Positions 27,919-44,425 of a DNA stretch of 64,000 nucleotides are shown here, piece after piece (position 1 is the first letter of the stretch; each line of letters starts with the position of its first letter). Source of the stretch: Acidimicrobiales bacterium (GTDB lineage Bacteria > Actinomycetota > Acidimicrobiia > Acidimicrobiales > Bog-793); contig DATLTN010000053.1 in the NCBI GenBank assembly GCA_035533595.1, forward strand, positions 1-64,000. The letters are read 5' to 3'. The notes beneath the pieces were generated by a model. It saw only the letters and a program-made list of their open reading frames with translations, made no database searches and was not told the DNA's origin. Position numbers and translations under genes: made by a program.

Positions 27919-28752
27919 TCAGACGAGCTTCAGCACGAGCGAAGGCGCCTGCTGGGCCTGCGCCAACATCGACGTGCCGGTCTGCATCAGGATCTGGTCC
28001 GTGGAGAAGGTGGTCATCTCCTGGGCCATGTTCACGTCGACGAGCTGGCTGTCAGCAGCAGAGAGGTTCTGCTGGCCGACGGTCAGGTTCGCGGCGATCG
28101 ACTGCAGCTCGTTCTGGATAGCGCCGACGCTCGCCTCGATGTTGTCGACGGTCGAGATGGCCGACTGCACCGCGCTGATCGCCGCCTGAGCGGAGCTCGC
28201 GGAGCCGACGCCCACCGAGCCGGTGGTGACGCCGAGCGCACCCGAAGTCGCCGCCGAGATGCTCACCGAGACCTGCTGGTTGGTCAGGTTGAACGCGCCC
28301 ACCTGCAGCACCTGGCTGGTGAACGTCCCGTCGAGGAGGTTCGTCTTGCCGTAGCTGGTGGTGTTGGCGATCTGGTCGATGTCGGCCTGCAGCGCCTGGA
28401 ACTCCTGCTGGTTGGCACCGAGCGACGTGGAGTCGTTGGTGGCACCGTTGGCCGAGGAGAGCGCGAGCTGGTTCATCGTCTGGAGAATCGACGAGATCTG
28501 GTTCAGCGCGCCCGACGCGGTCTGCACGAGCGAGACACCGTTCTGTGCGTTGGAGATGGCGACGGAGTAGCCGTTGGCCTGCGACTCGAGCGCCTGGCTC
28601 GTGACGTAGGCGGCGGGGCCGTCCGCAGCCGTCTGGATCGCAAGACCCGAGGAGAGCTCCCCGATGGCCTTGGTCTCCGCGTTGTCGGTGGAGTTCAGGT
28701 TGTTGTACGCCGAGATGGCGGACAGGTTCGTGTCAACGACGAGAGAAGACAT
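27919..28752 (-). CDS. fliC: Flagellin
   Basis: A flagellin of 277 residues, consisting almost only of the D0/D1 parts. N-terminal motifs: NLSAISAYNNLNSTDNAETK (about 9-28), then ELSSGLAIQTAADGPAAYVT and NAQNGVSLVQTASGALN. C-terminal motif: ILMQTGTSMLAQAQQAPSLV. The surface-exposed D2/D3 domains are essentially absent, which makes a short filament subunit close in size to Bacillus Hag. Many Ser/Thr residues remain in the middle and could be O-glycosylated, consistent with the glycosyltransferase genes transcribed divergently next door. A sigma-28-like promoter and a leader of about 120 nt precede it. Confidence 0.97.
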   Translation of the reverse strand: MSSLVVDTNLSAISAYNNLNSTDNAETKAIGELSSGLAIQTAADGPAAYVTSQALESQANGYSVAISNAQNGVSLVQTASGALNQISSILQTMNQLALSSANGATNDSTSLGANQQEFQALQADIDQIANTTSYGKTNLLDGTFTSQVLQVGAFNLTNQQVSVSISAATSGALGVTTGSVGVGSASSAQAAISAVQSAISTVDNIEASVGAIQNELQSIAANLTVGQQNLSAADSQLVDVNMAQEMTTFSTDQILMQTGTSMLAQAQQAPSLVLKLV

Positions 28753-28876
28753 CCATTTCCTCACTTTTCGCTTGGCGGCCCACGTCTTGCGGGTCGCACA
28801 CCCTTGGCCCCAGATGGAGCCATGGGATATATCGACCGACAGGGGCGGGACCTTGAGGGCTCCGTGGGAATTCCTC
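28752..28876 (-). promoter_or_regulatory. fliC leader with GGA motifs (candidate CsrA target)
   Basis: The predicted flagellin leader contains four GGA triplets on the coding strand: 28872-28874, 28861-28863, 28758-28760 inside the GAGGAAAT ribosome-binding region, and 28752-28754 at the start codon. CsrA recognises ANGGA-type motifs and in Bacillus it represses flagellin translation through such sites. A CsrA-like fusion protein is encoded at 40.4 kb, which makes this leader a reasonable target. No binding has been shown; GGA is frequent in GC-rich DNA. Confidence 0.4.
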
Positions 28877-28973: not shown

Positions 28974-31900
28974 ATGCCGCACCGCCCACCCGCCACGATC
29001 GCGGTCGTGCCCGGCGCCGCCCCGGCACGCGCCCGGGGCGGCCTCGCCGCGCTCACCGCCGCGCTCGGTCCCCACGACAACCTCGTCCTCCTGCAGGGCG
29101 ATGCCGAGCGCAACCCCCGGCGCTGGTTCGTCCCGCGCAGCGGCGGCGTCGTCCACCCCGACCGCCTCCCCTCCCCCCGGGAGATCGTCGTCGTGGTGGA
29201 CGAGCAGATGGTCGGCTCGCGGGACTGGCTCGAAGAGCTCGTCGCGTGCTTCCTCGATCCCCGCGTCGCGGGCGCCGCCCCCTTCACCAACCGCGCCACG
29301 GGCGAGGAGCTTTTCCTCGGCCTCCCCTACCGCCCCACCGAGAGCGCCGAGCGCGATGCCTTCCTCGCGAGCTTCGCGGAGGGGCGCGCCGCTGCCCTGC
29401 CCGTCACCCACCTCGCGGGGCCGACCCTCGCCCGCCGGGCCGACGTGCTCGCCGCCCACGGAGGCGTGAGCGGCCTCGCCGCCGCGCCCGACCGCTGGCG
29501 CGAGGCGCGCAGCGAGGAGGCCGACGGCTCGCTCGTCGTCGCCGCTCGTGCCTTTGTCCACCACCCCGGCGGGCGTGCCCACTCCCCCGCCGGGCCGCTC
29601 GTCTCGGCCTGTCTCATCGTGAAGGACGAGGAGGCGAACATCGGCCGCTGCCTCGCCTCGCTCGACGGGGCGGTCGACGAGATCGTCGTCTACGACACCG
29701 GCTCCGCGGACGGTACCGTCGAGCTCGCCGAGGAGGCGGGCGCCGCGGTGCACGCGGGCTACTGGGACGACGACTTCTCGCGGGCGCGCAACGCCGCCCT
29801 CGCGCACTGTCGCGGCGAGTGGGTGCTGTCGATCGACGCGGACGAGGCGCTCGTCGCGCCCGACCCCGGCGCGTTGCGGTCGTTCCTCGCCGCCGCGCCG
29901 ACGGCGACCGAGGGCTTCCTCGTGACGATCGACAACCTGCGCGGCACCGACACCGCGACCGTCCTCTCGCATCCGGCCTGTCGCCTGTTCCGTCGCGCCG
30001 CCGGCCACTGGGACGGTCGCATCCACGAGCAGGTGGTCGCCCGCGCCGGCAGTCGCGACCTCTCGCTCGCGGCGATCGACCTCTGCCGCCTCACCCACTG
30101 GGGCTATGTGCAGGCGGCGCTCGCCGGGCGCGACAAGGGGGCGCGCAACGTGCGCACCGCCTTCGGGGACCTCGCCGGCGGCTCGGAGCTCGACCCCGGT
30201 GAGCGGCTCACGAGCCTCGGCCGCTCCTATCTGATGGCGAGCCGCCTCGAGGAAGGAATCGAGATCACGCGGCGGGCGGTGAGCGCGGCCGCCGGGCGCC
30301 CGAGCACCGAGCGCCTCGCGCGCCGCGCCCTCATCGAGGGGCTGCTCGCGCTCGGCGCCTTCGAGGAGGCGCTCGAGGAGTGCGCAGCACTGGCGTCCAT
30401 GCAGCAGGTCCCGACGATCGCCAACGCGCACGCCGGCGCGGCCCTCCTCGCGCTCGAAAGGCACGAAGAGGCGCTCGTCGCCTTCGAGTCCGTGCGTGCC
30501 GGGACCGACGACGACGGCTTCGACTACGACCCGAGCTTCGTCGCAGCGCCGAAGGCGGAGTGCCTCGCCGCCCTCGGTCGGCACGGTGCCGCGGCCGACG
30601 TGCTGCTCGGCTGCCTGCGCGAGCAGGGGGGCATCGACGCCCACCTCGGGCTGCTCGTCGAGTGCCTGAGCGAGGCGGAGCGCCCGCTCGGCGAGGTCGC
30701 GGACGCGATCCCCGAGGGGCGCTCGCGCGCCTTCGTGCCGCAGCTCCTCCAGCTGCAGCCCGACGCGGCCGACCGGGTCCTCGAGGCGTGGATCGAGCGA
30801 CGCCCCGACGACCTCGCGGTGCTCGCAGCTGCCGGCCGCCTCGGCCCCCGTCTGCCGGTCGCCCGCCAGCTCGCCTGGTCGACGCGCCTGCGCGCGCACG
30901 GCCTCGGCGGCTCCTGCCCCCTCGTCCTCGGTGCGGCCGAGAGCGGCCTCGACCCGGCGACGCGTGCCCTCGGTGCCGCGGTCGCCCAGCTCGCCTTCGG
31001 TGACGAGACCGCGGCGATGGCCTTCGTCGCCTCGGTGCTCGGCACCCCGCTGGCGGCCCGCGAGGAGCTCCTCGCGGCGCTCGGCCAGCTCGACGGCGGC
31101 GTGGCGGCCCTCGCGGCGCGCCTGCTACCGACGGCGGCAGCGCCCTGTGACCTCCCCTCCGGCGGCAACGGCCGCCGCAGCGTGCTCCTCGTCAGCGAGC
31201 GGGCGCCGGCGCCTTCGGCCTACGCGCTCGCCCGTGAGCTGCGGGTGCACGGCCACGCGGTCACCCTCATGCAACCGCAGCCGGCGGCACCCGCCGAGGC
31301 GCTCCTCGCGCCGCATCAGGTGCGCGTGCACGGCTTCGCCACCGACGGTGCCGGTCCCGGGCTTCTCGCCCTCGCCGCGCAGCTCACCGCCACGGCCGCC
31401 TACGACACGGTCGTGCTCGCTGGCACGAGGGAGACGACCGTGACCGGCCTGCGGGCGCTCGCCCCCCTCGCGGCGTTGCTCTCGTTCGAGCAGGAGGCGG
31501 CGAGCAGCTTCCTCCGTCCGCTCGCGGTGGAACACCAGCCGCCTCGCTGGTTGCTCGGCGAGCCGCACTGGGAGGAGCTCTTCGGCGAGCCGCTCACGAC
31601 GCCCTCCGAGGCACGCCACGGCCTGCTCGTCCTCGGCGAGGCACCGGCGGAGCGAGAGCTCGCCACTGCGCTCCTCGAGGCGGTCGCCGCCGAGGTCGAG
31701 ATGCCGATCGCGCTCCTCGGCGACCGCGACCTCGGCGAGCTCGCCACCGCGCTGCCCGAGGTCCTCCGCCTCGGCCCCCTCGCCGACCCGCTCCCGTGGC
31801 TGCGCGCGGCGCGCGCCACCCTCGTCTTTCCGGGAACCGAGGTCACCGCGTGGCGGGCGCTCGCCGCCCACGCAGCGACGCCCGCCGTCGAGGTCGCCCT

Positions 31901-33170
31901 CCGGCGCGGCGCCGAGGAGCTCTGCGAGCAGCTGGCAGCGGCGCTCGGCGGCGGAGCCGCGACGGCCGCGACGCGGGTGACCGGTTCGGCCGATCCGCTC
32001 GGCCCGCTCGGCCCCCCCGAGCCGCGGCGTGTCCATCGCCACGGCTCCACCGTGGTGCTCCGGGGGGGCGTCTTCGGCCACGACAGCCTCTCGACAGTCA
32101 ACCGCGAGCTGCTCGTCGCGCTCCGCGAGCGGGGGACTGCCGTCTCGGCGCTCACGGCCGAGGAGCCGACGGCTGCCGAGGGGCGGCGCCTCTCGGACAT
32201 CGCGCTGCATCGTGAGCTGCCTCGCGGGGATGTCGCCCTCGAGATCCGCCACGCCTTCCCCCCGCTGTTCACCCCGACACCGCATCCCCTCGTGCTCATC
32301 CAGCCGTGGGAGTTCGGCTGCCTCCCTGCGGAGTGGGTCGGCCCGCTGCGCGACGTGGTCGACGAGCTGTGGGTGCCGACGCACTACGTTCGCCAGGCGG
32401 CGATCGACAGTGGCGTCGACCCGGCACAGGTCGTCGTCGTGCCGAACGGCGTCGACCCCCGCACCTTCTCCCCCGAGGGCCCCCGGCGTGCGCTGCGCAC
32501 CGGCAAGTCGCTGAAGCTGCTGTTCGTCGGCGGGCTGATCGAGCGCAAGGGCGTCGACGCACTCCTCGAGACGTACTGCAGCACCTTCACCGCCGTCGAC
32601 GACGTCTGCCTGGTGCTGAAGCCCTTCGGCTCGGCGACGGTGTACCGCGACTCGACCCTCGAGGGCGACGTCCGACGCCTCGCGAGCGGCGGCGGGCCGG
32701 AGATCGAGTTCGTCGACGACGACCTCACGGCCGCGGAGATGGCGGCGCTCTACCGGGCCTGCGACGTGCTCGTCCACCCCTACCGCGGGGAGGGCTTCGG
32801 GATGCCGATCGCCGAGGCGATGGCCTGCGGCCTCCCGGTGGTCGTCCCCGACGACGGCGCCTGCCTCGACTTCTGCGACGAGGAGGTCGCCTGGATGATC
32901 CCCACCCGGAGGGTCCCGATCCGCCCGAGCGAGTGGACCCCCGTCGCCGGCGGCTCGTGGTGGCTCGAGCCGAGCCGCGACGGCCTTGCGGCGGCGCTGC
33001 GCGAAGCGTGCGCGGACCAGGCTGGCCGCGAGCGGCGCGGCCGCGCGGGCGCCGAGCGCATCGCCGCGCAGTTCACCTGGAGCCACGCCGCGGAGATCGC
33101 CGCCGGGCGCATCGCCGCCCTCCTCAGCGCCGCCGAAAGGCGCGGCCACGAGCAAGGACGTGCCGCATGA
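28974..33170 (+). CDS. Giant multidomain glycosyltransferase (GT2 + repeats + GT4)
   Basis: A 1398-residue protein transcribed divergently from flagellin. Residues 1-200 look like a reduced family-2 glycosyltransferase. A full GT2 domain starts near 211 (ACLIVKDEEANIGRCLASL, then VYDTGSADGTVELAEEAGA and SIDADEA, its DxD motif), resembling SunS-like enzymes. Residues about 430-700 are helical repeats of TPR character. A GT4 domain fills about 1030-1395, with LLFVGGLIERKGVDALLETY and the donor-binding EGFGMPIAE (E-x7-E, about 1271-1279). Such enzymes build glycans on proteins or carriers. Its position between fliC and flhA, and coupling to two more genes, suggests flagellin O-glycosylation. Confidence 0.85.
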   Translation: MPHRPPATIAVVPGAAPARARGGLAALTAALGPHDNLVLLQGDAERNPRRWFVPRSGGVVHPDRLPSPREIVVVVDEQMVGSRDWLEELVACFLDPRVAGAAPFTNRATGEELFLGLPYRPTESAERDAFLASFAEGRAAALPVTHLAGPTLARRADVLAAHGGVSGLAAAPDRWREARSEEADGSLVVAARAFVHHPGGRAHSPAGPLVSACLIVKDEEANIGRCLASLDGAVDEIVVYDTGSADGTVELAEEAGAAVHAGYWDDDFSRARNAALAHCRGEWVLSIDADEALVAPDPGALRSFLAAAPTATEGFLVTIDNLRGTDTATVLSHPACRLFRRAAGHWDGRIHEQVVARAGSRDLSLAAIDLCRLTHWGYVQAALAGRDKGARNVRTAFGDLAGGSELDPGERLTSLGRSYLMASRLEEGIEITRRAVSAAAGRPSTERLARRALIEGLLALGAFEEALEECAALASMQQVPTIANAHAGAALLALERHEEALVAFESVRAGTDDDGFDYDPSFVAAPKAECLAALGRHGAAADVLLGCLREQGGIDAHLGLLVECLSEAERPLGEVADAIPEGRSRAFVPQLLQLQPDAADRVLEAWIERRPDDLAVLAAAGRLGPRLPVARQLAWSTRLRAHGLGGSCPLVLGAAESGLDPATRALGAAVAQLAFGDETAAMAFVASVLGTPLAAREELLAALGQLDGGVAALAARLLPTAAAPCDLPSGGNGRRSVLLVSERAPAPSAYALARELRVHGHAVTLMQPQPAAPAEALLAPHQVRVHGFATDGAGPGLLALAAQLTATAAYDTVVLAGTRETTVTGLRALAPLAALLSFEQEAASSFLRPLAVEHQPPRWLLGEPHWEELFGEPLTTPSEARHGLLVLGEAPAERELATALLEAVAAEVEMPIALLGDRDLGELATALPEVLRLGPLADPLPWLRAARATLVFPGTEVTAWRALAAHAATPAVEVALRRGAEELCEQLAAALGGGAATAATRVTGSADPLGPLGPPEPRRVHRHGSTVVLRGGVFGHDSLSTVNRELLVALRERGTAVSALTAEEPTAAEGRRLSDIALHRELPRGDVALEIRHAFPPLFTPTPHPLVLIQPWEFGCLPAEWVGPLRDVVDELWVPTHYVRQAAIDSGVDPAQVVVVPNGVDPRTFSPEGPRRALRTGKSLKLLFVGGLIERKGVDALLETYCSTFTAVDDVCLVLKPFGSATVYRDSTLEGDVRRLASGGGPEIEFVDDDLTAAEMAALYRACDVLVHPYRGEGFGMPIAEAMACGLPVVVPDDGACLDFCDEEVAWMIPTRRVPIRPSEWTPVAGGSWWLEPSRDGLAAALREACADQAGRERRGRAGAERIAAQFTWSHAAEIAAGRIAALLSAAERRGHEQGRAA

Positions 33171-36604: not shown

Positions 36605-38665
36605 ATGAATACGAGGCAGCGAATCGGGCTCTTCGGAGTCCCTGCGGCGGTCGTGGTGATCGTCATCATGCTCGTCGTTCCGCTGCCGTCGTTCCTGCTC
36701 GACCTCCTGATCTCGATCAACCTCGCCGGCGCGCTCGTCATCCTTTTGACGACGATGCACGTCGAGAAGGCCCGTGACTTCTCGGTCTTCCCGTCGCTCC
36801 TGCTGGTGGCGACGATGTTTCGCCTCGCGCTGAACGTCAGCGTCACCCGCCTCGTGCTGCTGCACGGCTACGCCGGTGCGGTCGTCCAGAGCTTCGGGAA
36901 CTTCGTCATCGGCGGCCAGATCATCGTCGGCATGATCGTCTTCCTCATCCTCATCCTCATCCAGTTCGTGGTCGTGACGAGCGGTGCGGGGCGCGTCGCC
37001 GAGGTGGCCGCCCGCTTCTCCCTCGACGCGATGGCCCCCAAGCTCGTGGCGATCGACGGCGAGCTGAACAGCGGCCTCATCGACGAGGACGAGGCGCGCC
37101 GCCGGCGCCGCGACATCGACCAGAACTCCGAGTTCTACGGGAACATGGATGGCGCCTCGAAGTTCGTGCGCGGTGACGCGATCGCAGCGGTCGTGATCAC
37201 GATGATCAACCTCATCGGCGGCTTCATGATCGGCGTCGTGCAGCGCCACCTCTCGCTGTCGGTCGCCGTGCACACCTACTCGGTGCTGTCGATCGGTGAC
37301 GGCCTCGTCTCGCAGATCCCCGCCCTTTTGCTCTCGATCTCGACCGGCCTCATCGTGACGCGGGCCAAGAGCGACGACTCCGACTTCGGTGGCGACATCC
37401 TCAGCCAGATCCACGCGCAGCACCGGGCGTTGCAGATCGCGGGCGCTGCGATGGGCGTCCTCGCCCTCGTGCCGGGGCTGCCGCACGTGCCGTTCATCGC
37501 GATCGGCATCGTGCTCTGGGTCGGCGCCGCGAAGCTCCGTGGCAACGCCGAGGCGCGCACCGCCGCCGACGCCCTCGCCGCCGAGGGGCCCGCCGAGGAG
37601 ACGGGCGACACCCCCGCCGCCCTCGCCGCGCAGATGCGCGTCGAGCGCCTCGAGCTCGAGCTCGCCGCCAACCTCACCCCGCTCGCCGACCAGAGCCACG
37701 GCGGCGACCTCCCCGACCGCGTGCGGGCGCTGCGCCGCAAGATCGCCCTCGAGCGCGGCCTCGTCGTCCCGACGGTGCGGATGCACGACAATGTCGCGCT
37801 CCCCGCCGACACCTACGCGGTGCGGGTGAACGGCGTCGAGGTGGCCCGCGCCAAGGTCTTCCCGGGCCGGCTCCTCGCGATCGGCCTCGGGATCGACCGC
37901 CTCCCCGGTGAGGCGGTCATCGAGCCCGCCTTCCGGCTGCCGGCGAAGTGGATCCCCGCCGAGCTGCGCGAGCAGGCCCTCGGCCTCGGGATCGCGCCCA
38001 TCGACCCCTCCTCGGCGATGATCACCCACCTCGCCGAGATCATCTACGCGCACGGCGCCGACCTGCTCTCCTCCCAGCAGGTGAACGTCCTCCTCGACGC
38101 GATGAAGGCCACCGACCCGGCGGTCATCGAAGAGATGAAGCTCGCCCAGGTCTCGGTGATGGACCTGCACCGCGTGCTCGTCTCACTCATCGAGGAGGCG
38201 GTGCCGATCACCGACGTGGTGCGGATCGTCGAGGCGGTGACCGCCCGCGCCCGCCTCGGGAGCAAGACCAACGAGGCACTCGTCGAGGCGGCGCGCGCCG
38301 CCGTCGGGGCGCGCATCACCGCCGACCGCGCCCGTGACGGGCGCCTCGCGGTGATCACCCTCGACGCCGTCTTCGAGCAGGGGCTGCTGAACGGGTTGCG
38401 CTCGAACGACAACGGGACGCTCCTCACCTTGGAGCCGGCGGCCGCCGAGTACCTCATCGCCGAGGTGCGCGGCATCTACGAGGAGGGCCTGCGCCAGGGC
38501 CGCGACCCGGTCCTCGTCGTTGCCGCGCCGCTGCGCGCCTCGATCGCCCGCCTCCTCGCCCCGGCGCTCGCGCGCCTCGGCGTCCTCGCAGTGACCGAAC
38601 TCGGCAAGCAGGTCCAGCTGGACCGGATTGGGGTCGCGCATGCCAGCGCAACGGTTGGTGTTTGA
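36605..38665 (+). CDS. flhA: Flagellar export gate protein FlhA
   Basis: FlhA of 686 residues. The N-terminal half has eight hydrophobic segments and the FHIPEP hallmarks: VVPLPSFLLDLLISINLAGA, VFPSLLLVATMFRLALNVS, and the cytoplasmic loop with VRGDAIAAVVITMINLIGG. The C-terminal cytoplasmic domain (about 340-686) docks export chaperones and includes the AEIIYAHGADLLSSQQVNVL segment. The ATG at 36605 has GGAG 6 nt upstream; a GTG four codons earlier has none. In this genome flhA is separated from flhB by about 17 kb and follows the glycosylation genes. Confidence 0.96.
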   Translation: MNTRQRIGLFGVPAAVVVIVIMLVVPLPSFLLDLLISINLAGALVILLTTMHVEKARDFSVFPSLLLVATMFRLALNVSVTRLVLLHGYAGAVVQSFGNFVIGGQIIVGMIVFLILILIQFVVVTSGAGRVAEVAARFSLDAMAPKLVAIDGELNSGLIDEDEARRRRRDIDQNSEFYGNMDGASKFVRGDAIAAVVITMINLIGGFMIGVVQRHLSLSVAVHTYSVLSIGDGLVSQIPALLLSISTGLIVTRAKSDDSDFGGDILSQIHAQHRALQIAGAAMGVLALVPGLPHVPFIAIGIVLWVGAAKLRGNAEARTAADALAAEGPAEETGDTPAALAAQMRVERLELELAANLTPLADQSHGGDLPDRVRALRRKIALERGLVVPTVRMHDNVALPADTYAVRVNGVEVARAKVFPGRLLAIGLGIDRLPGEAVIEPAFRLPAKWIPAELREQALGLGIAPIDPSSAMITHLAEIIYAHGADLLSSQQVNVLLDAMKATDPAVIEEMKLAQVSVMDLHRVLVSLIEEAVPITDVVRIVEAVTARARLGSKTNEALVEAARAAVGARITADRARDGRLAVITLDAVFEQGLLNGLRSNDNGTLLTLEPAAAEYLIAEVRGIYEEGLRQGRDPVLVVAAPLRASIARLLAPALARLGVLAVTELGKQVQLDRIGVAHASATVGV

Positions 38666-40070
38666 AGGTCCGACGCCCGAGGCGGTGATCCTCGACGCCT
38701 GCTCGGCCTACGGACCAGAGGTCCAGCTGAGCGAGCCCGAGGAGGTCCGCGAGGGCGGGATGTTCGGCTTCTTCGCGAAGCGCTCGTACCGCGTACAGGT
38801 GCACGCCGCCGAGCGCGGCCCGGGTGGCCCCCGCCCGACGGCGCGCGCCACCTCGCCCGCGGCCGAGCCGGCCGACACGGTGCTCGAACGGCTGCTCGCG
38901 GAGAGCCCCGACGTGTCCTACGAGGCGGCCGCGCCCGCCGCCCCGGTGGCCCCCGAGCGCGCCCCGGAGCTCGAGACGTCCACCGCGCACGGCCCCGTCG
39001 CGGCCCCGACCTTCGAGGAGGCGCTGGCGCGCGCCGCCGGGGCGATCGGCCCCGAGGCGCCCGGCGCCGCCACCGGTGGGGACGCCTTCGAGAGCCTCGT
39101 CGCCCGCCTGCGCCGCGACGAGCTGAGCGGTGGGGTCTTCACCCCCACCGAGGAGCTCACCACCGACGAGGCGACGGCCGACGAAGCCGCCGCTCATGAG
39201 CCCGTCGACCTCGGCGCTCCCGCCGGCCTCGCCGCGCTCCCCACGACGGGCGAGCCCGCACCGCCCGAGAAAGCGCCGGCGCCGCGGCTCTCGCCCCCTG
39301 CCGCTGTCCCCCGCCCCTTGCTCGCGGACGGCCTGCGCGCCGGCTCCGGGCGCGTCGTCGCCGCCCTGTCGAGCGTCGCCTTCCCGACCCAGCTCCTCGC
39401 CTCGGCCGCGGGGCGCCTGCCGACCGGCTTCGGCGTCGAGGAGGTCTTCGGCACCCTGCCGGCGCCGCGCCCCCTCCCCCACGTCCCCGGCAGCCTCATC
39501 GCCGTGGTCGGCAGCGAGGAGGCGGCGCTCGGTCACGCCCGGCGGATCGCCGGCGAGATCGGCCTCAGTGACGGCGAGATCGCCCTCGCGCGCACGACCG
39601 AGTGCTCTGCGGCTGCCGGCCGCCACAGCCGGCGGGTGAAGCGCAGCGAGGAAGAGCAGGCGGTGCGCGACAGCCTCGCCCCCGACCTCTACGTCGAGAG
39701 CCCCGAGCAGGCCGCCGCCCTCTCCCCCGGATGGCGCCGCGACCGCGTCGGCATCGTCGCCGTTGAGCTCCCCTCCTCGCTCGAGGCTGCGACGCGCGGG
39801 CGGGCGATGCTGCGCGCGCTCCGCCCCTCGGTGACGCTCCTCGCCACCGAGGCGGCCTGGAAGGCCGCCGACGTCGCCTACCTCGCCGACGGCCTCGGTG
39901 GTGTGGACGCGCTGCTCGTCGACCACCTCTCCCAGACGATGACCCCCGCCGAGATCCTCGCCGCCGAGCTGCCGGTGCGCTCCCTCGACGGTGAGCCGGC
40001 CGACCCGGCCTGCTGGGTCCGCCACGTCGAGGCGACCCTCGACCGCCGGGTGAGGGGCGAGGGCGACTGA
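38640..40070 (+). CDS. FlhF-like protein lacking the GTPase motifs
   Basis: A 476-residue protein right after flhA, where flhF normally sits. The N-terminus matches the FlhF start (FEGPTPEAVILDACSAYGPE, then GGMFGFFAKRSYRVQVH) and is followed by a long disordered Ala/Pro-rich linker (about 60-240). The last 200 residues align in order with the FlhF NG domain, but the P-loop position reads VVGSEEAALGHA (about 286-297) instead of GxTGxGKTT, and no DTAGR or TKLD equivalents are present. It therefore cannot be a normal SRP-type GTPase. It may keep a scaffold role in placing the flagellum. The ATG overlaps the 3' end of flhA; a TTG 12 nt earlier is possible. Confidence 0.75.
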   Translation: MPAQRLVFEGPTPEAVILDACSAYGPEVQLSEPEEVREGGMFGFFAKRSYRVQVHAAERGPGGPRPTARATSPAAEPADTVLERLLAESPDVSYEAAAPAAPVAPERAPELETSTAHGPVAAPTFEEALARAAGAIGPEAPGAATGGDAFESLVARLRRDELSGGVFTPTEELTTDEATADEAAAHEPVDLGAPAGLAALPTTGEPAPPEKAPAPRLSPPAAVPRPLLADGLRAGSGRVVAALSSVAFPTQLLASAAGRLPTGFGVEEVFGTLPAPRPLPHVPGSLIAVVGSEEAALGHARRIAGEIGLSDGEIALARTTECSAAAGRHSRRVKRSEEEQAVRDSLAPDLYVESPEQAAALSPGWRRDRVGIVAVELPSSLEAATRGRAMLRALRPSVTLLATEAAWKAADVAYLADGLGGVDALLVDHLSQTMTPAEILAAELPVRSLDGEPADPACWVRHVEATLDRRVRGEGD

Positions 40071-40071
40071 C

Positions 40072-40353
40072 GTGCCCGGCGTCCGCAACGTCGAGCTGAT
40101 CCTCATCGCGACGCTCGTCGTCTCGCTCCCGACGCTCCTGCAGGCCTTCGCCGGCGGGGTGGGCGCGGCGGCACTGCTCATCCGGCTCACCCTCGCGCTC
40201 GCTCTCTGCTGGGCGGGGGGGGCGATCGTCGAGCGCGTCGTCGACACCTACGCGCGCGAGACCAGGCGCCGGGAGATGGCTCGCCACCTGGGCACCCTCG
40301 CCGAGGCGCGCGCACGCCTCGCCGCCGAGGCGCGGGCCGAGCAGGAGCAGTGA
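40072..40353 (+). CDS. Small two-helix membrane protein in the flhA operon
   Basis: A 93-residue protein, GTG start one nt after the FlhF-like stop. Two hydrophobic helices are predicted (about 7-27 and 32-54), followed by a charged helix rich in Arg/Glu/Ala (about 56-93) that looks like a short coiled coil. No family was recognised. Its place between flhF-like and CsrA-like genes suggests a motility-associated membrane partner, perhaps a docking point for the FlhF-like protein. This is inference from position only. Confidence 0.7.
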   Translation: MPGVRNVELILIATLVVSLPTLLQAFAGGVGAAALLIRLTLALALCWAGGAIVERVVDTYARETRRREMARHLGTLAEARARLAAEARAEQEQ

Positions 40354-40434
40354 TGAACCCGATCGGAAGGGCGGTGGGCGCTAGATTCACTCCGTCGTCC
40401 CCCGCTTTTGACCCGACCGAGGAGGGAGCGCGCG

Positions 40435-40992
40435 GTGCTCGTACTGCGGCGGCGCCCGAACGAGGCGATCGTGATCGACGGGGGCCTCACCCTCACGCTG
40501 CTCCAGGTCACCGGCGGTGTCGCCTGGCTGTGCTTCACGACCGCCACGACGCCGGGCCGCGTCGAGGTCGCGGTGCCGGCGAACGCGCTGAAGGCGGCGG
40601 AGCTCTCCTTCCGCGGGGTGCGGGCGCTTTCGCGCCGTGGCCCGCTGACGACCCTCGAGCTCACAGCCGACGGGGAGCCGGAGCTCGAAGCGGTGGTCAC
40701 GCTCACCCGCCGGCCGGGCGAGGCGATCGAGGTCGCCGGTCTCAACTTCTCGCTCACCTCGATCGAGAAGGAGCGCCTCTACCTCGAGCTCACCGCGCAG
40801 GGCCTCGGGGCGCCGATCACCCTCTCGATCGTCGACGTCTCCTCGGTCGACGCCCGTATCGGGGTGAGCGCGCCGCCGGAGATCCGGGTGAATCGCGCCG
40901 AGCTCTGGGAGCAAATGCAGGCGGCGAACGCCGCAGCGGCGGGCGAATGGAGCGCGGAGGACCTCGCCGCGTTGACCACCGAGAAGCCCTAG
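40435..40992 (+). CDS. Tandem CsrA-like fusion protein
   Basis: A 185-residue protein containing at least two CsrA-type units. The first (1-56) starts MLVLRRRPNEAIVIDG like canonical CsrA and runs through all strands, but its final RNA-binding segment reads VEVAVPANALK, lacking the usual HR. The second (87-163) restarts with VVTLTRRPGEAIEVAG, has an extra strand pair (105-132), and closes with DARIGVSAPPEIRVNRAELW, keeping Arg154 at the position of the key CsrA arginine. CsrA is normally a 60-75-residue homodimer that binds GGA motifs in leaders, including that of flagellin. The GTG start has GGAGGG 8 nt upstream. A single-chain pseudo-dimer with one working RNA-binding face is the simplest reading. 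Confidence 0.82.
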   Translation: MLVLRRRPNEAIVIDGGLTLTLLQVTGGVAWLCFTTATTPGRVEVAVPANALKAAELSFRGVRALSRRGPLTTLELTADGEPELEAVVTLTRRPGEAIEVAGLNFSLTSIEKERLYLELTAQGLGAPITLSIVDVSSVDARIGVSAPPEIRVNRAELWEQMQAANAAAAGEWSAEDLAALTTEKP

Positions 40993-41291
40993 CCGGCGCT
41001 CCCCCGCGGTCGCGGCACCCTCGCCCGGCAGCCTTTATCGCGCGGCCCGCACAGCCTGTATCGAAGATCGCGCCCCACCGCGAGCAAACACCCCCGGCCG
41101 GGGCGACCGCCAGCTCAGCACTGGTATTGGCAGCGGTCGCCGAGAGTCGCGCGCCACGCGACGCGGTCACGCAATCCCGCAACTGCACTGCAACACCCGC
41201 TGCCCATTGCACACTGCTGGGGCACGCGAAGTTGGGGGTTGCGAGAGTGAAGTTGGTTCACTACGGTGACCGAACAACACAGGAGTGCGCC
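40993..41291 (+). promoter_or_regulatory. Region upstream of the second sigma factor operon
   Basis: A 299-nt gap of lower GC content than its surroundings. It contains a 12-bp palindrome CCCCGGCCGGGG (41092-41103) and a housekeeping-type promoter candidate, TTGCGA (41239-41244), 17 nt, TACGGT (41262-41267), reading rightwards. That promoter would start transcription about 20 nt before the small leader ORF. No sigma-28-like element was seen, so this sigma gene seems not to be self-activated through such a promoter. Confidence 0.4.
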
Positions 41292-41405
41292 GTGTGCGGT
41301 AGCGCTCCTGGCGGCAAAGGGTTGGCGGAGAACCCGACCCCGCACGCCGGTGGGACCGAGACCCGCCGGTGGAGAACACAGGTGGCCAGAGAGCGACGTC
41401 GATGA
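41292..41405 (+). CDS. 37-residue leader ORF coupled to the second sigma factor
   Basis: A GTG preceded by AGGAG at 6 nt spacing (41281-41285) opens a 37-codon frame. It begins MCGSAPGGKGLAENPTPHAG, ends in a very basic Arg-rich tail, and its TGA overlaps the ATG of the sigma factor gene (ATGA). The good ribosome-binding site, the coupling and the weak site of the sigma gene itself suggest that translation of this small frame controls sigma factor synthesis. No similarity was recognised; it may act only as a leader. Confidence 0.5.
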   Translation: MCGSAPGGKGLAENPTPHAGGTETRRWRTQVARERRR

Positions 41406-42223
41406 CCCTCCAGCACGCAACCCTGCCGGTATCCCGCACACGCGCCACTGGCGCGAGGGCACTCCCCGCAGTCGACGAGGAGTCGCTCTGGCTGCGCTAC
41501 TGGGCCGAACGCGACCGCAGCCTGCGCAACGAACTCCTCCTCTGCTACCAGCACCTCACGGGCCAGGCCGTCGGCCGCCTGCCGAGCGCGATCCGCCTCC
41601 ACTGGGATTCCGACGACCTCGCGAGCTTCGCCACCCTCGGCCTCGTCGAGGCGATCGAGCGCTTCGAGGAGGGCTCGATCGTCAACCGCTTCCCGAGCTA
41701 CGCGACGAGCCGCATCCGTGGCGCGATCTTCGACGAGCTGCGCCGCCTCGACTGGCTGCCGCGCACCGTGCGCCGGCGGGTGATCACCTACCGCTCGACC
41801 GCCGAGGCGCTCTCCTCCGAGCTCGGCCGCACCCCTGCGAGCCGCGAGGTCCTCGCCGAGATGGGCGCCGAGCCCGTGAGCGGCCACCAGATCCTGCGCG
41901 AGGTGCAGAGCGCGCAGCTCGCCCAGCTCGACGCCCCCGTCGACGGCGGGCGCGGCGATGTCGCCACCTTCGCCGAGGCTGTCGAGGCGCCCGACTCCGC
42001 CCCCGACCAGCACCTCCTCGCCGAGGAGGAGCGCGCGCAGCTGCGCGAGGCGGTCCTCGCCCTCCCCGAGCGGCAGCGGACCGTCGTCTCACTGCATCTC
42101 CTCGGGGGCCTCACCCAGGAGCAGATCGGGGCGATGCTCGGCGTGAGCAACTCCCGTGTCTGCCAGATCGAGGCGGTGGCACTGCAGACGCTGCGCCGCA
42201 CCCTCGGCGCCCTGCGCATCTGA
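41402..42223 (+). CDS. Second RNA polymerase sigma factor, FliA/WhiG (sigma-28) family
   Basis: A 273-residue sigma factor with region 2 (LRNELLLCYQHLTGQAVGRL, then FPSYATSRIRGAIFDELRRL), the LDWLPRTVRRRV motif that marks the sigma-28 group, region 3 (about 120-165) and region 4 with the helix-turn-helix TQEQIGAMLGVSNSRVCQI. It differs from the factor at 3.7-4.5 kb over most of its length, so they are not recent duplicates. The start is the ATG that overlaps the leader ORF stop. One of the two may serve flagellar genes and the other a different programme, or they may act in sequence. Confidence 0.92.
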   Translation: MTLQHATLPVSRTRATGARALPAVDEESLWLRYWAERDRSLRNELLLCYQHLTGQAVGRLPSAIRLHWDSDDLASFATLGLVEAIERFEEGSIVNRFPSYATSRIRGAIFDELRRLDWLPRTVRRRVITYRSTAEALSSELGRTPASREVLAEMGAEPVSGHQILREVQSAQLAQLDAPVDGGRGDVATFAEAVEAPDSAPDQHLLAEEERAQLREAVLALPERQRTVVSLHLLGGLTQEQIGAMLGVSNSRVCQIEAVALQTLRRTLGALRI

Positions 42224-42243: not shown

Positions 42244-43404
42244 TCAGTCCGCGAGGCGGGCGACGTTCTTCCCGAGCAGCTTCGCGAGCCCGAGCGCGTC
42301 GTTCAGGCGCTCGTAGGGGAGGTCCGCGGGGTCGGCGGTGATCACCCCCACCGAGACCGTCACCGTCTCGGCCTCGAAGGGGTAGTCGAGGCGCGCGGCG
42401 CGGGTCGCGACGACGATCCGCTCGGCGATCGCCACCGCGCCGTCGGGGCCGTCCACCCCCGCGAGGAGGAGGAACTCGTCCTCGCCGTAACGGACGAGGA
42501 CATCACCGGCTCGGTGCTCGGCTGCGAGCACACCCGCCACCGCGACGAGGGCCGCGTCACCCGCCGCCACCCCGAGGCGCTCGTTCAGCGCGCCGAGGTC
42601 GTCGACATCGACGAGCAGCGCCGCCACCGTCGCCCCCGACTCCCCCGCCTCCGGCAGGTAGTGCTCGAGGAAGCGGCGGTTGTGCAGACCCGTGAGGAGG
42701 TCCCGCTCCGCGATGTCGTCGCGCCCCGGCAGCTCGGTGGGGAGCGCGGCGAGCGGGGCGAGCGCCTGTAGGAGCGAGAGGTAGTGCGGCGCCGCCTCGC
42801 CGGGGTCGGTCTCCTCCGACCGCCGCAGCGCCCCCTCCGCGAGCGCGAGGGTGCGCCGGTCGAGGCGGGGGCGGATCGGTGCCAGCAGCTGGCGGGCGGC
42901 GGCGACCGCCTCGACCGGGTCGACGGTCCAGCGGACGATGAAGCGCCGGGAGGCCTCGAGCGTCGGGCCGGGCATCAGCCCCTTGTCGTCGACGGCGACG
43001 ACGACGCCGGCGAGGGCGCCGTCGAAGACTCCGAGCACCCAGGCGTCGTCGATCTCCGGGCGGCCGGTGAGGTCGAGGGGATCGATGCCCGCCTCGGGCA
43101 CCGCCTCGCCGGGGAAACCGACGATCGTCGTCACGCCGACGGCCTGGTACGCGCCGAAACGGGCCGCCGCGGCGGAGAAGTAGGCGTGGCGCTGGAAGAA
43201 CGCGAAGGTGAGTGGCGGGGCGGCGGGGTCGAAGCCCTTCGCCACGCTCACTCCGAGCGAGGAGGCGAAGACCTGTTGCAGGGCGCCGGTGATCACCGAG
43301 AGGGTCGCCTTGGTCATCGGCGCGGTCGCGGCCTCGGTGGCGGGCAACGGGCGGGGCGCGCGGCGCCGCTCGGCGCGACCTGTCCTCGTACGGTCGATAC
43401 TCAT
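42244..43404 (-). CDS. DICT-like sensor with C-terminal GGDEF domain
   Basis: A 386-residue protein. The N-terminal part (about 30-190) resembles the DICT sensor domain found with diguanylate cyclases and two-component proteins (SVAKGFDPAAPPLTFAFFQR, VDDKGLMPGPTLEASRRFIV). The C-terminal GGDEF domain (about 230-385) has the DLLTGLHNRRFLEHY entry and DVDDLGALNERLG. Its signature reads RYGEDEF rather than GGDEF, so cyclase activity is likely reduced or uncertain. Convergent with the sigma factor gene. The ATG chosen has AGGAG with 5-nt spacing. Likely ties c-di-GMP signalling to the adjacent motility genes. Confidence 0.82.
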   Translation of the reverse strand: MSIDRTRTGRAERRRAPRPLPATEAATAPMTKATLSVITGALQQVFASSLGVSVAKGFDPAAPPLTFAFFQRHAYFSAAAARFGAYQAVGVTTIVGFPGEAVPEAGIDPLDLTGRPEIDDAWVLGVFDGALAGVVVAVDDKGLMPGPTLEASRRFIVRWTVDPVEAVAAARQLLAPIRPRLDRRTLALAEGALRRSEETDPGEAAPHYLSLLQALAPLAALPTELPGRDDIAERDLLTGLHNRRFLEHYLPEAGESGATVAALLVDVDDLGALNERLGVAAGDAALVAVAGVLAAEHRAGDVLVRYGEDEFLLLAGVDGPDGAVAIAERIVVATRAARLDYPFEAETVTVSVGVITADPADLPYERLNDALGLAKLLGKNVARLAD

Positions 43405-44425
43405 CTCGCTCCTGCCAAAGAGGTTCGTCTCGTCCCGGCTCTCACCCATCGCGAAGGTACTAACGGCAGATCGGCGCCGATCCTTGTGACTCGTTCACGC
43501 ACTCAGTACCGATCGCCGCCCAGTGTGGTGGATGGCGAGCCGCCGCGGGGGCAAGCCGCCTCAGCGGCCGGTCGGCGGGTACCCACCGCCTCTGGTGAGG
43601 CGAGTGGCCGCGGGTCCCCTACAAGAGAAGGAAGAAGTCCTTTCAAGGCGTCGGTGTCGTCACCGGCGCGATCTGCCCGAGCAGGACGAGACCGCGCAGC
43701 ACGCCTGCGGTGACCCTCGTCTTCGTGTCCCAGTACGGCCGGAGCCGATGGTGTGCGGAGCCGCGCACCATCGCAGAGAGCCCCTTTTCCGAGAGCTTCG
43801 CACGAAGCGCCTCTGGAACGGCGTGCCCGAGCGAGCAGCGCTGGCGCTAGGCATCGGTCCCCAACTCGACGGCGGATCGGCGTGCCGCCAACGGCACCGA
43901 GCGCGCCTGGCGTTCGCCAGACGCGCGCGGCGCCCCGAGTGTGGTTCGCGAGAGCGCCTCGAGCGACTCGATGACTCCCTTCACGGCTTCGGCAAGCGAG
44001 TGGCACCGAAGCGGCAAGAAAGGGTGTGCGGCCGGGCAGCCGAGCATCGGTCGGTGCCTCCAAGCCACGCCTCAATTCCCGGCCCTGTGGGGAGCGACGC
44101 ACGATCTTGTGAGCAGGTCTGGGACCCGGCGATCGTAGCGCGACCAGCCGGTTCACTCCACAGAGGGAGCCCCTCTCGCCGCGGCTAAGCAATGAGGCGC
44201 CTGCGCTGTCGTGGGGACAACAACACCGCGATCGTTTCGCGCAAGGGCGATCACGTGCCGGGCTCACGTGCGCCAAGCGCCATCCGATGCAGGACCCACA
44301 TTTCGTGTTGGTCAACGTTTGCGAGCAGGTGGCTCGGTTCGGGCGACCACCAGGCGCGAGGTCAGGCGGTTCTCGCAACCAAGGGCGACGCGTCCAGTCA
44401 TGCCGGCGAATCTAGCGACGAGCCA
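43405..44425. other. Gene-poor region of about 1 kb
   Basis: No confident gene was found here. The first 100 nt are the control region of the DICT/GGDEF gene. A leftward frame at about 43641-43848 reads coherently (LRAKLSEKGLSAMVRGSAHH, then WDTKTRVTAGVLRGLVLLGQ) and could encode a small protein of 42 residues from its ATG, or be the end of a lost gene. The longest leftward frame (43503-44378) is Arg/Cys/Pro-rich with no pattern of a real protein. Base composition changes across this stretch, which marks the border between the motility island and the catabolic region. Confidence 0.5.
43469..43482. repeat. 14-bp perfect palindrome upstream of the GGDEF gene
   Basis: GATCGGCGCCGATC is perfectly self-complementary and lies about 65 nt before the ATG at 43404. 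It could be an operator. Each half also contains GCCGATC, resembling a sigma-28 -10 element, although no TAAA lies at the usual distance. Confidence 0.45.

What the first reader, a model, noticed from the sequence alone, without database searches (positions are those of the whole stretch)
40435..40992. Fused tandem CsrA protein in a flagellar operon
CsrA is normally a 60-75-residue strand-swapped homodimer. Here one 185-residue chain holds a complete CsrA-like unit (1-56) and a second one (87-163) that both begin with the same VxxLxRRPxEAI pattern. Only the second keeps the C-terminal VNR arginine; the first has lost it, and the second carries an extra strand pair. This looks like an asymmetric single-chain pseudo-dimer with one RNA-binding face, a change that would alter how it bridges GGA sites and how FliW could antagonise it. 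No fliW gene is visible in the window.
Basis: partly seen in the sequence, partly recalled or inferred. Interest (0 to 1): 0.85.

Follow-up and report, generated by a model that had tools for sequence, protein, structure and literature searches.

The report
Single-chain CsrA with one binding site
In a lineage of acid-habitat actinobacteria the RNA-binding regulator CsrA, normally a pair of identical small proteins with two RNA-binding faces, has become one fused chain that keeps only one complete face, a natural test of whether two faces are needed to control flagellin.

Summary
In detail: window 40435-40992 (+) encodes one 185-aa protein with two CsrA-like halves (Pfam CsrA, 57 bits). It is not a one-off: 11 relatives in the same Acidimicrobiaceae-like family carry it (28-41% identity) in the order flhA-flhF-h93-csrA, under purifying selection. 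Other flagellated members of the order mostly carry ordinary single CsrA plus FliW. Repeat 1 runs to about residue 82, not 56. Both repeats, not only the second, hold an extra strand pair, apparently a duplicated b3-b4 hairpin. AlphaFold2 gives a confident fold (pLDDT 88.7). Folded alone, repeat 2 loses exactly its b1 and b5 strands, as expected if those swap onto repeat 1, like the two chains of a CsrA dimer. The composite RNA site (b1 of repeat 1 plus b5 of repeat 2) is invariant in 12/12; the opposite site lacks the R44 equivalent in 12/12. Only one C-terminal helix with the FliW-contact Asn remains. Best reading: an intramolecular CsrA pseudo-dimer, one RNA site, one FliW site. The window genome also lacks FliW, FlgL and FlgK and the GGA of the flagellin-leader hairpin kept in 7/7 relatives examined. 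Sequence and conservation are shown; monovalency and function are inferred.

The parts
40435..40992 (+). csrA tandem gene, 185 aa, GTG start
   Evidence: start codon matches M1 of relatives' MLVLxRR
40419..40425 (+). Shine-Dalgarno GAGGAGG, 9 nt before the GTG
   Evidence: sequence printed
40435..40680 (+). repeat 1, residues 1-82: b1 2-6, b2 11-14, b3 18-26, b4 29-35, extra b3' 43-48, b4' 55-60, then a hairpin 62-68/71-76 in place of b5 and helix
   Evidence: AlphaFold2 DSSP, hhalign repeat 1 vs repeat 2
40687..40989 (+). repeat 2, residues 85-185: b1 87-92, b2 97-100, b3 103-111, b4 114-121, extra b3' 128-135, b4' 140-145, b5 152-154, helix 155-170, tail helix 174-181
40435..40455 (+). b1 of repeat 1 (MLVLRRR): L4 and R6 equivalents, invariant in 12/12; one half of the kept RNA site
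40885..40896 (+). b5 of repeat 2 (R151-V152-N153-R154; R154 = E. coli R44); R151, V152 and R154 invariant; other half of the kept RNA site
40639..40641 (+). G69, position of the R44 equivalent in repeat 1: never R or K in 12 sequences
40927..40929 (+). N165, equivalent of B. subtilis N55 (FliW contact), invariant in 12/12
   Evidence: role of N55 from PMC6529632
36593..38665 (+). flhA
   Evidence: PF00771 738.8 bits
38628..40070 (+). degenerate flhF-like gene; same place in relatives
   Evidence: weak TIGR03499 N-terminal match only, synteny
40072..40353 (+). 93-aa conserved membrane-like protein of unknown family, found beside the tandem csrA in all 11 relatives
40993..41368 (.). junction where the nearest relative carries fliW, flgK, fliL, motB, motA (and others fliW, flgL, flgK); no FliW remnant found
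41369..42223 (+). FliA/WhiG-type sigma factor
27919..28752 (-). flagellin gene, likely CsrA target
   Evidence: PF00669/PF00700, start
28775..28797 (-). flagellin-leader hairpin; loop AAGAC here, six-base loop with GGA in 7/7 relatives examined

Best explanation
The gene encodes a single-chain CsrA. Two CsrA-like repeats in one polypeptide fold into one CsrA-dimer-like sandwich by swapping their first and last strands onto each other. The two ends of the chain (b1 of repeat 1 and b5 of repeat 2) form the one complete GGA-binding face; the opposite face (b1 of repeat 2 and b5 of repeat 1) has decayed. The only C-terminal helix with the FliW-contact Asn is at the chain's end, so each molecule has one RNA site and one FliW site. 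In most of the lineage it should repress flagellin translation by binding a GGA hairpin in the leader and/or the GGA around the start codon, relieved by FliW from the neighbouring gene, without bridging two GGA sites with one molecule. Shown: tandem homology, conservation pattern, synteny, hairpin. Predicted: fold and strand swap. Inferred: monovalency, 1:1 FliW control, flagellin as target.
For: Both halves match CsrA. Relatives with the same architecture in several other genera, dN/dS 0.20-0.30 in the two closest pairs, both repeats alike. Kept site L4, R6, V42, R44 equivalents invariant 12/12; repeat-1 R44 equivalent basic in 0/12, repeat-2 L4/R6 equivalents variable. AlphaFold2 whole chain pLDDT 88.7, pTM 0.80; repeat 2 alone drops to 79.7 and its b1 and b5 are no longer strands, as expected if they pair with repeat 1. 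b1 and b5 of opposing monomers form each RNA face, with L4 and R44 critical (PMC7652899). Neighbour fliW in 11/11 relatives. GGA hairpin in the flagellin leader of 7/7 relatives examined. In B. subtilis one FliW suffices to inhibit a CsrA dimer with only one FliW site (PMC6529632).
Against: Foldseek/VIA find no significant match of the whole model to CsrA (5dmb_D Z 4.3, rmsd 5.8); for repeat 2 alone CsrA chains rank first and second but with E 0.04 and 0.14. The alignment behind the model has 11 rows. In the window protein itself b1 of repeat 2 still reads LTRR, so its second site may be only half lost. Quaternary state is unknown. The flagellin link is by analogy.
Confidence: 0.68

Rival explanations
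1. The tandem chain itself dimerises (two chains, four repeats), so the active particle again has two RNA faces and can bridge GGA sites.
For: CsrA repeats are prone to strand swapping; each chain has one good site, so a dimer of chains would be bivalent. Flagellin leaders of the lineage keep two GGA elements (upstream hairpin and start-codon hairpin).
Against: A confident single-chain fold gives no sign of a strand that needs a partner from another chain. Not directly testable here.
Confidence: 0.15
2. Two separate CsrA-like domains on a string, each an independent barrel or each pairing with another chain.
For: Repeat 1 and repeat 2 have the same layout; repeat 2 alone keeps a five-strand core with moderate confidence.
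Against: Repeat 2 alone loses b1 and b5 as strands and has lower confidence; conservation of the site is split between the two repeats.
Confidence: 0.07
3. In this particular genome the protein no longer controls flagellin, or is on its way out: FliW, FlgL, FlgK are missing and the leader hairpin has lost its GGA. (Not exclusive with the best explanation, which concerns the family.)
For: No FliW, one PF00669 gene only, no FlgK in a 96% complete genome; csrA and the sigma-factor gene adjoin where the nearest relative has fliW, flgK, fliL, motB, motA in between; loop AAGAC instead of a GGA loop.
Against: The gene keeps every invariant residue including N165; SD and start-codon GGA remain; the block may sit in the missing few percent of the assembly; a single genome.
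Confidence: 0.3
4. An artefact: two genes fused by a sequencing error or a mis-called ORF.
For: None found.
Against: Same fused ORF in 12 separate assemblies with dN/dS well under 1 in close pairs.
Confidence: 0.01

Closest known systems
CsrA/RsmA family (PF02599), e.g. B. subtilis CsrA with FliW
   Same: b1 MLVLxRR, b5 RVxR, C-terminal helix with FliW-contact Asn, flagellar locus, fliW neighbour in relatives, GGA hairpin in flagellin leader
   Different: one fused chain of two repeats instead of a homodimer of ~70 aa; extra b3-b4 hairpin in each repeat; only one complete RNA face and one FliW helix
RsmN/RsmF of Pseudomonas (PMC3791407)
   Same: a rearranged CsrA relative that keeps the RNA-recognition strands while changing the fold
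   Different: RsmN has an inserted helix and is a homodimer; here fusion, duplicated hairpin and asymmetry
Engineered CsrA heterodimers (E. coli wild type/R44A, reviewed in PMC7652899; B. subtilis wild type/N55D, PMC6529632)
   Same: dimer with one working RNA face, or one working FliW site
   Different: those are laboratory constructs; here both asymmetries are fixed in one natural polypeptide
Simple tandem CsrA of another family in the same order (L043:5300-5737 +, L044:4997-5443 -; 146-149 aa)
   Same: two CsrA units in one chain
   Different: two plain CsrA units without the extra hairpin; the first b5 still has Arg and the second b1 keeps MHVLSRR, so both faces may work; probably an independent fusion

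Membership tests
CsrA/RsmA (PF02599) | Profile score above the curated cut-off | tested here: met
   57 bits against 27 for the whole protein
CsrA/RsmA (PF02599) | NCBIfam equivalog cut-off for CsrA (NF002469, TIGR00202) | tested here: not met
   50 against 73 bits, 48.6 against 70.1 bits
CsrA/RsmA (PF02599) | RNA-binding residues L4 in b1 and R44 in b5 | tested here: met
   present once as a composite of repeat 1 and repeat 2, invariant 12/12; R44 equivalent absent from the opposite pair
CsrA/RsmA (PF02599) | Short polypeptide of about 65-75 residues with b1-b5 and one helix | tested here: not met
   185 residues, two repeats each with two extra strands
CsrA/RsmA (PF02599) | Strand-swapped homodimer with two RNA faces | tested here: inconclusive
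   intramolecular swap supported by loss of b1 and b5 in isolated repeat 2; oligomer state not testable
CsrA/RsmA (PF02599) | Binding of GGA in hairpin loops | not testable with these tools
   candidate hairpins seen in flagellin leaders
FliW-controlled CsrA | C-terminal helix with N55 equivalent | tested here: met
   N165 12/12
FliW-controlled CsrA | A fliW partner gene in the genome | tested here: inconclusive
   fliW beside the gene in 11/11 relatives; not found in the window genome, which is 96% complete

The most novel reading that the evidence does not exclude
A natural, lineage-wide monovalent CsrA: fusion plus decay of one face fixes one RNA site and one FliW site per molecule, so flagellin control works without dual-site bridging; the loss of fliW and of the leader GGA in the window genome would be a coupled breakdown of the same circuit.
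Probability: 0.5. Interest if true: 0.72.

Novelty: new variant of a known kind. Interest (0 to 1): 0.6.

Why it matters
In E. coli full repression of glgC needs both RNA pockets of a CsrA dimer and bridging of two GGA sites (PMC7652899), while in B. subtilis one FliW per dimer is enough and FliW:CsrA-dimer runs near 1:1 (PMC6529632). A natural protein with both asymmetries built in lets one ask directly whether bivalency is needed in the flagellin circuit, and gives a one-gene scaffold in which either face can be changed alone. It also shows that CsrA, usually treated as an invariant 60-75-residue homodimer, can be fused and widened by strand-pair duplication. I found no report of a natural tandem CsrA in the open-access library searched.

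Tried and rejected
Whole-model fold comparison against the PDB: no match above background, best CsrA row Z 4.3; single-chain comparison is ill suited to a swapped dimer, so I do not read it as absence of the fold. Repeat-2 model: CsrA chains top Foldseek without significance; VIA rows are generic antiparallel sheets. Viral contigs and plasmids: no relatives. Rfam on the window: nothing. Covariation of the leader hairpins: pairing is 91% in register against 44-59% when slid, but covariation does not exceed shuffles, so the hairpin rests on conservation, not on compensatory change. FliW tree: the tandem genomes cluster, with the single-CsrA genomes of the same family apart, but several forks are open and G058 (single CsrA, long branch) falls inside, so a single origin of the fusion is likely, not proven. 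Idea that monovalency would go with a single GGA in the leader: not supported, two GGA elements remain in the relatives.

Full report
Observation. The 558-base ORF at 40435-40992 (+) is real: GTG start with GAGGAGG nine bases upstream, high G+C at third codon positions as in neighbouring genes, and the same fused ORF in relatives. Pfam CsrA matches it at 57 bits in two stretches, roughly residues 1-29 to profile 1-29 and residues 125-162 to profile 15-52; NCBIfam CsrA equivalogs match below their cut-offs. It is the only CsrA gene found in the genome.

Anatomy. An alignment of repeat 1 (1-84) with repeat 2 (85-170), each as a profile of 12 sequences, runs over 80 columns with a single gap (probability 98%, E 2.6e-13). 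Against a profile of ordinary CsrA, 1-38 matches CsrA 1-38, 84-124 matches 2-37, 122-166 matches 14-56, and 38-80 matches 18-41 more weakly (probability 46%). So each repeat reads b1-b2-b3-b4 followed by a second b3-b4 and b5. AlphaFold2 on the 11-row alignment gives pLDDT 88.7, pTM 0.80 and strands at these places in both repeats. Modelled alone, repeat 2 keeps b2, b3, b4, b3', b4' and the helices, but its b1 (87-92) and b5 (152-154) are no longer strands and confidence falls to 79.7. That is what a swap of b1 and b5 onto the other repeat predicts, the arrangement known between the two chains of CsrA. The inferred sheet order, b5(A)-b2-b3-b4-b3'-b4'(B)-b1(A), would simply widen each five-strand sheet to seven; this order is inference.

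One site kept, one lost. In CsrA each RNA face is b1 of one monomer and b5 of the other, L4 and R44 being critical (PMC7652899). In 12 sequences L2, L4, R6, R7 of repeat 1 and V152, R154 of repeat 2 never change, while the R44 equivalent of repeat 1 is G, E, D, Q, S, P or A and never basic, and the L4/R6 equivalents of repeat 2 vary. The window protein is among the least decayed at b1 of repeat 2 (LTRR). Only repeat 2 has the C-terminal helix, with N165 invariant; it aligns with B. subtilis N55, whose change to Asp makes CsrA deficient in FliW binding (PMC6529632). The B. subtilis and E. coli CsrA sequences used for that comparison were written from memory.

Distribution. Among 34 sampled genomes of the same family, ten others carry the tandem gene, and a further one (L030) came from a search of genome contigs, whose titles name the lineage as Acidimicrobiaceae / Actinomycetes MAGs. 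The flhA-flhF-93-aa gene-csrA order is shared, with fliW convergent and adjacent or near in nearly all, followed by flgL and/or flgK in the loci read in full; one short contig (G005, the most divergent member at 28% identity) has another arrangement with fliW still adjacent. Other genomes of the family (for example G001, G004, G014, G019, G025) have a single CsrA with fliW. Across 198 genomes of the order nearly every genome with FlhA has CsrA and FliW. The extended tandem form was not seen outside this family in 395 sampled genomes of the class, and in a phylum sample the window genome was the only one with it. Two genomes of another family in the order have a plain tandem CsrA of 146-149 aa, probably independent.

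The window genome is the odd one. It has no FliW, no FlgK and only one flagellin-N gene, the flagellin itself, so no FlgL. In L030 csrA is followed by fliW, flgK, fliL, motB, motA and then the sigma-factor gene; here csrA and the sigma-factor gene are 376 bases apart with no FliW remnant. Either the block was moved to an unassembled place or lost. fliL, motA and motB were not searched genome-wide.

Flagellin leader. Seven relatives examined have, about 23-47 bases before the flagellin start, a G+C-rich hairpin with a six-base loop holding GGA (A[C/G]GGAN), plus a second hairpin with GGA around the start codon; the stem has mismatches in G024 and G033. Single-CsrA genomes of the order often have a similar loop (AUGGAN, ACGGAN). 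This matches the known preference of CsrA for GGA in hairpin loops (PMC7652899). The window genome keeps the stem but its loop is AAGAC, one base shorter and without GGA. The one tandem genome without FliW is thus the one without the upstream GGA: a coherent picture of a circuit relaxing, but n = 1.

Mechanism. Most likely one molecule binds one GGA site in the flagellin leader and blocks translation; FliW, freed when flagellin is exported, binds the single C-terminal helix and releases it. In B. subtilis one FliW is enough to inhibit a dimer that has only one FliW site, so the reduced stoichiometry is workable. Shown: sequence, conservation, synteny, hairpins. Predicted: fold. Inferred: valency, FliW binding, target.

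Novelty. It is a member of the CsrA superfamily by profile and by its kept RNA site, but fails the family's size and two-chain layout, so I call it a new variant. No report of a natural tandem or single-chain CsrA turned up in the open-access library; subscription papers are not covered.

Noticed in passing
window 38628-40070 (+): The gene in the flhF place has no Pfam match and only a trace of FlhF at its N-terminus; a degenerate FlhF-like protein conserved in the lineage (the GTPase motifs look eroded by eye).
   Followed up: partly
window 40072-40353 (+): A 93-aa protein of no known family sits beside the tandem csrA in all 11 relatives at 42-55% identity.
   Followed up: partly
L043:5300-5737 (+) and L044:4997-5443 (-): Plain tandem CsrA fusions of 146-149 aa in another family of the order; one of the two genomes (G168) has no FliW, FlhA or flagellin hit.
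   Followed up: partly
window 40993-41368: Apparent deletion or relocation of a fliW-flgL-flgK-fliL-motB-motA block, leaving flagellin, fliD and fliS in place.
   Followed up: partly
window 28974-33170 (+): A 1398-aa protein with glycosyltransferase domains diverges from the flagellin gene, possibly flagellin glycosylation.
   Followed up: no
window 42244-43449 (-): A GGDEF-domain protein lies convergent to the sigma-factor gene.
   Followed up: no
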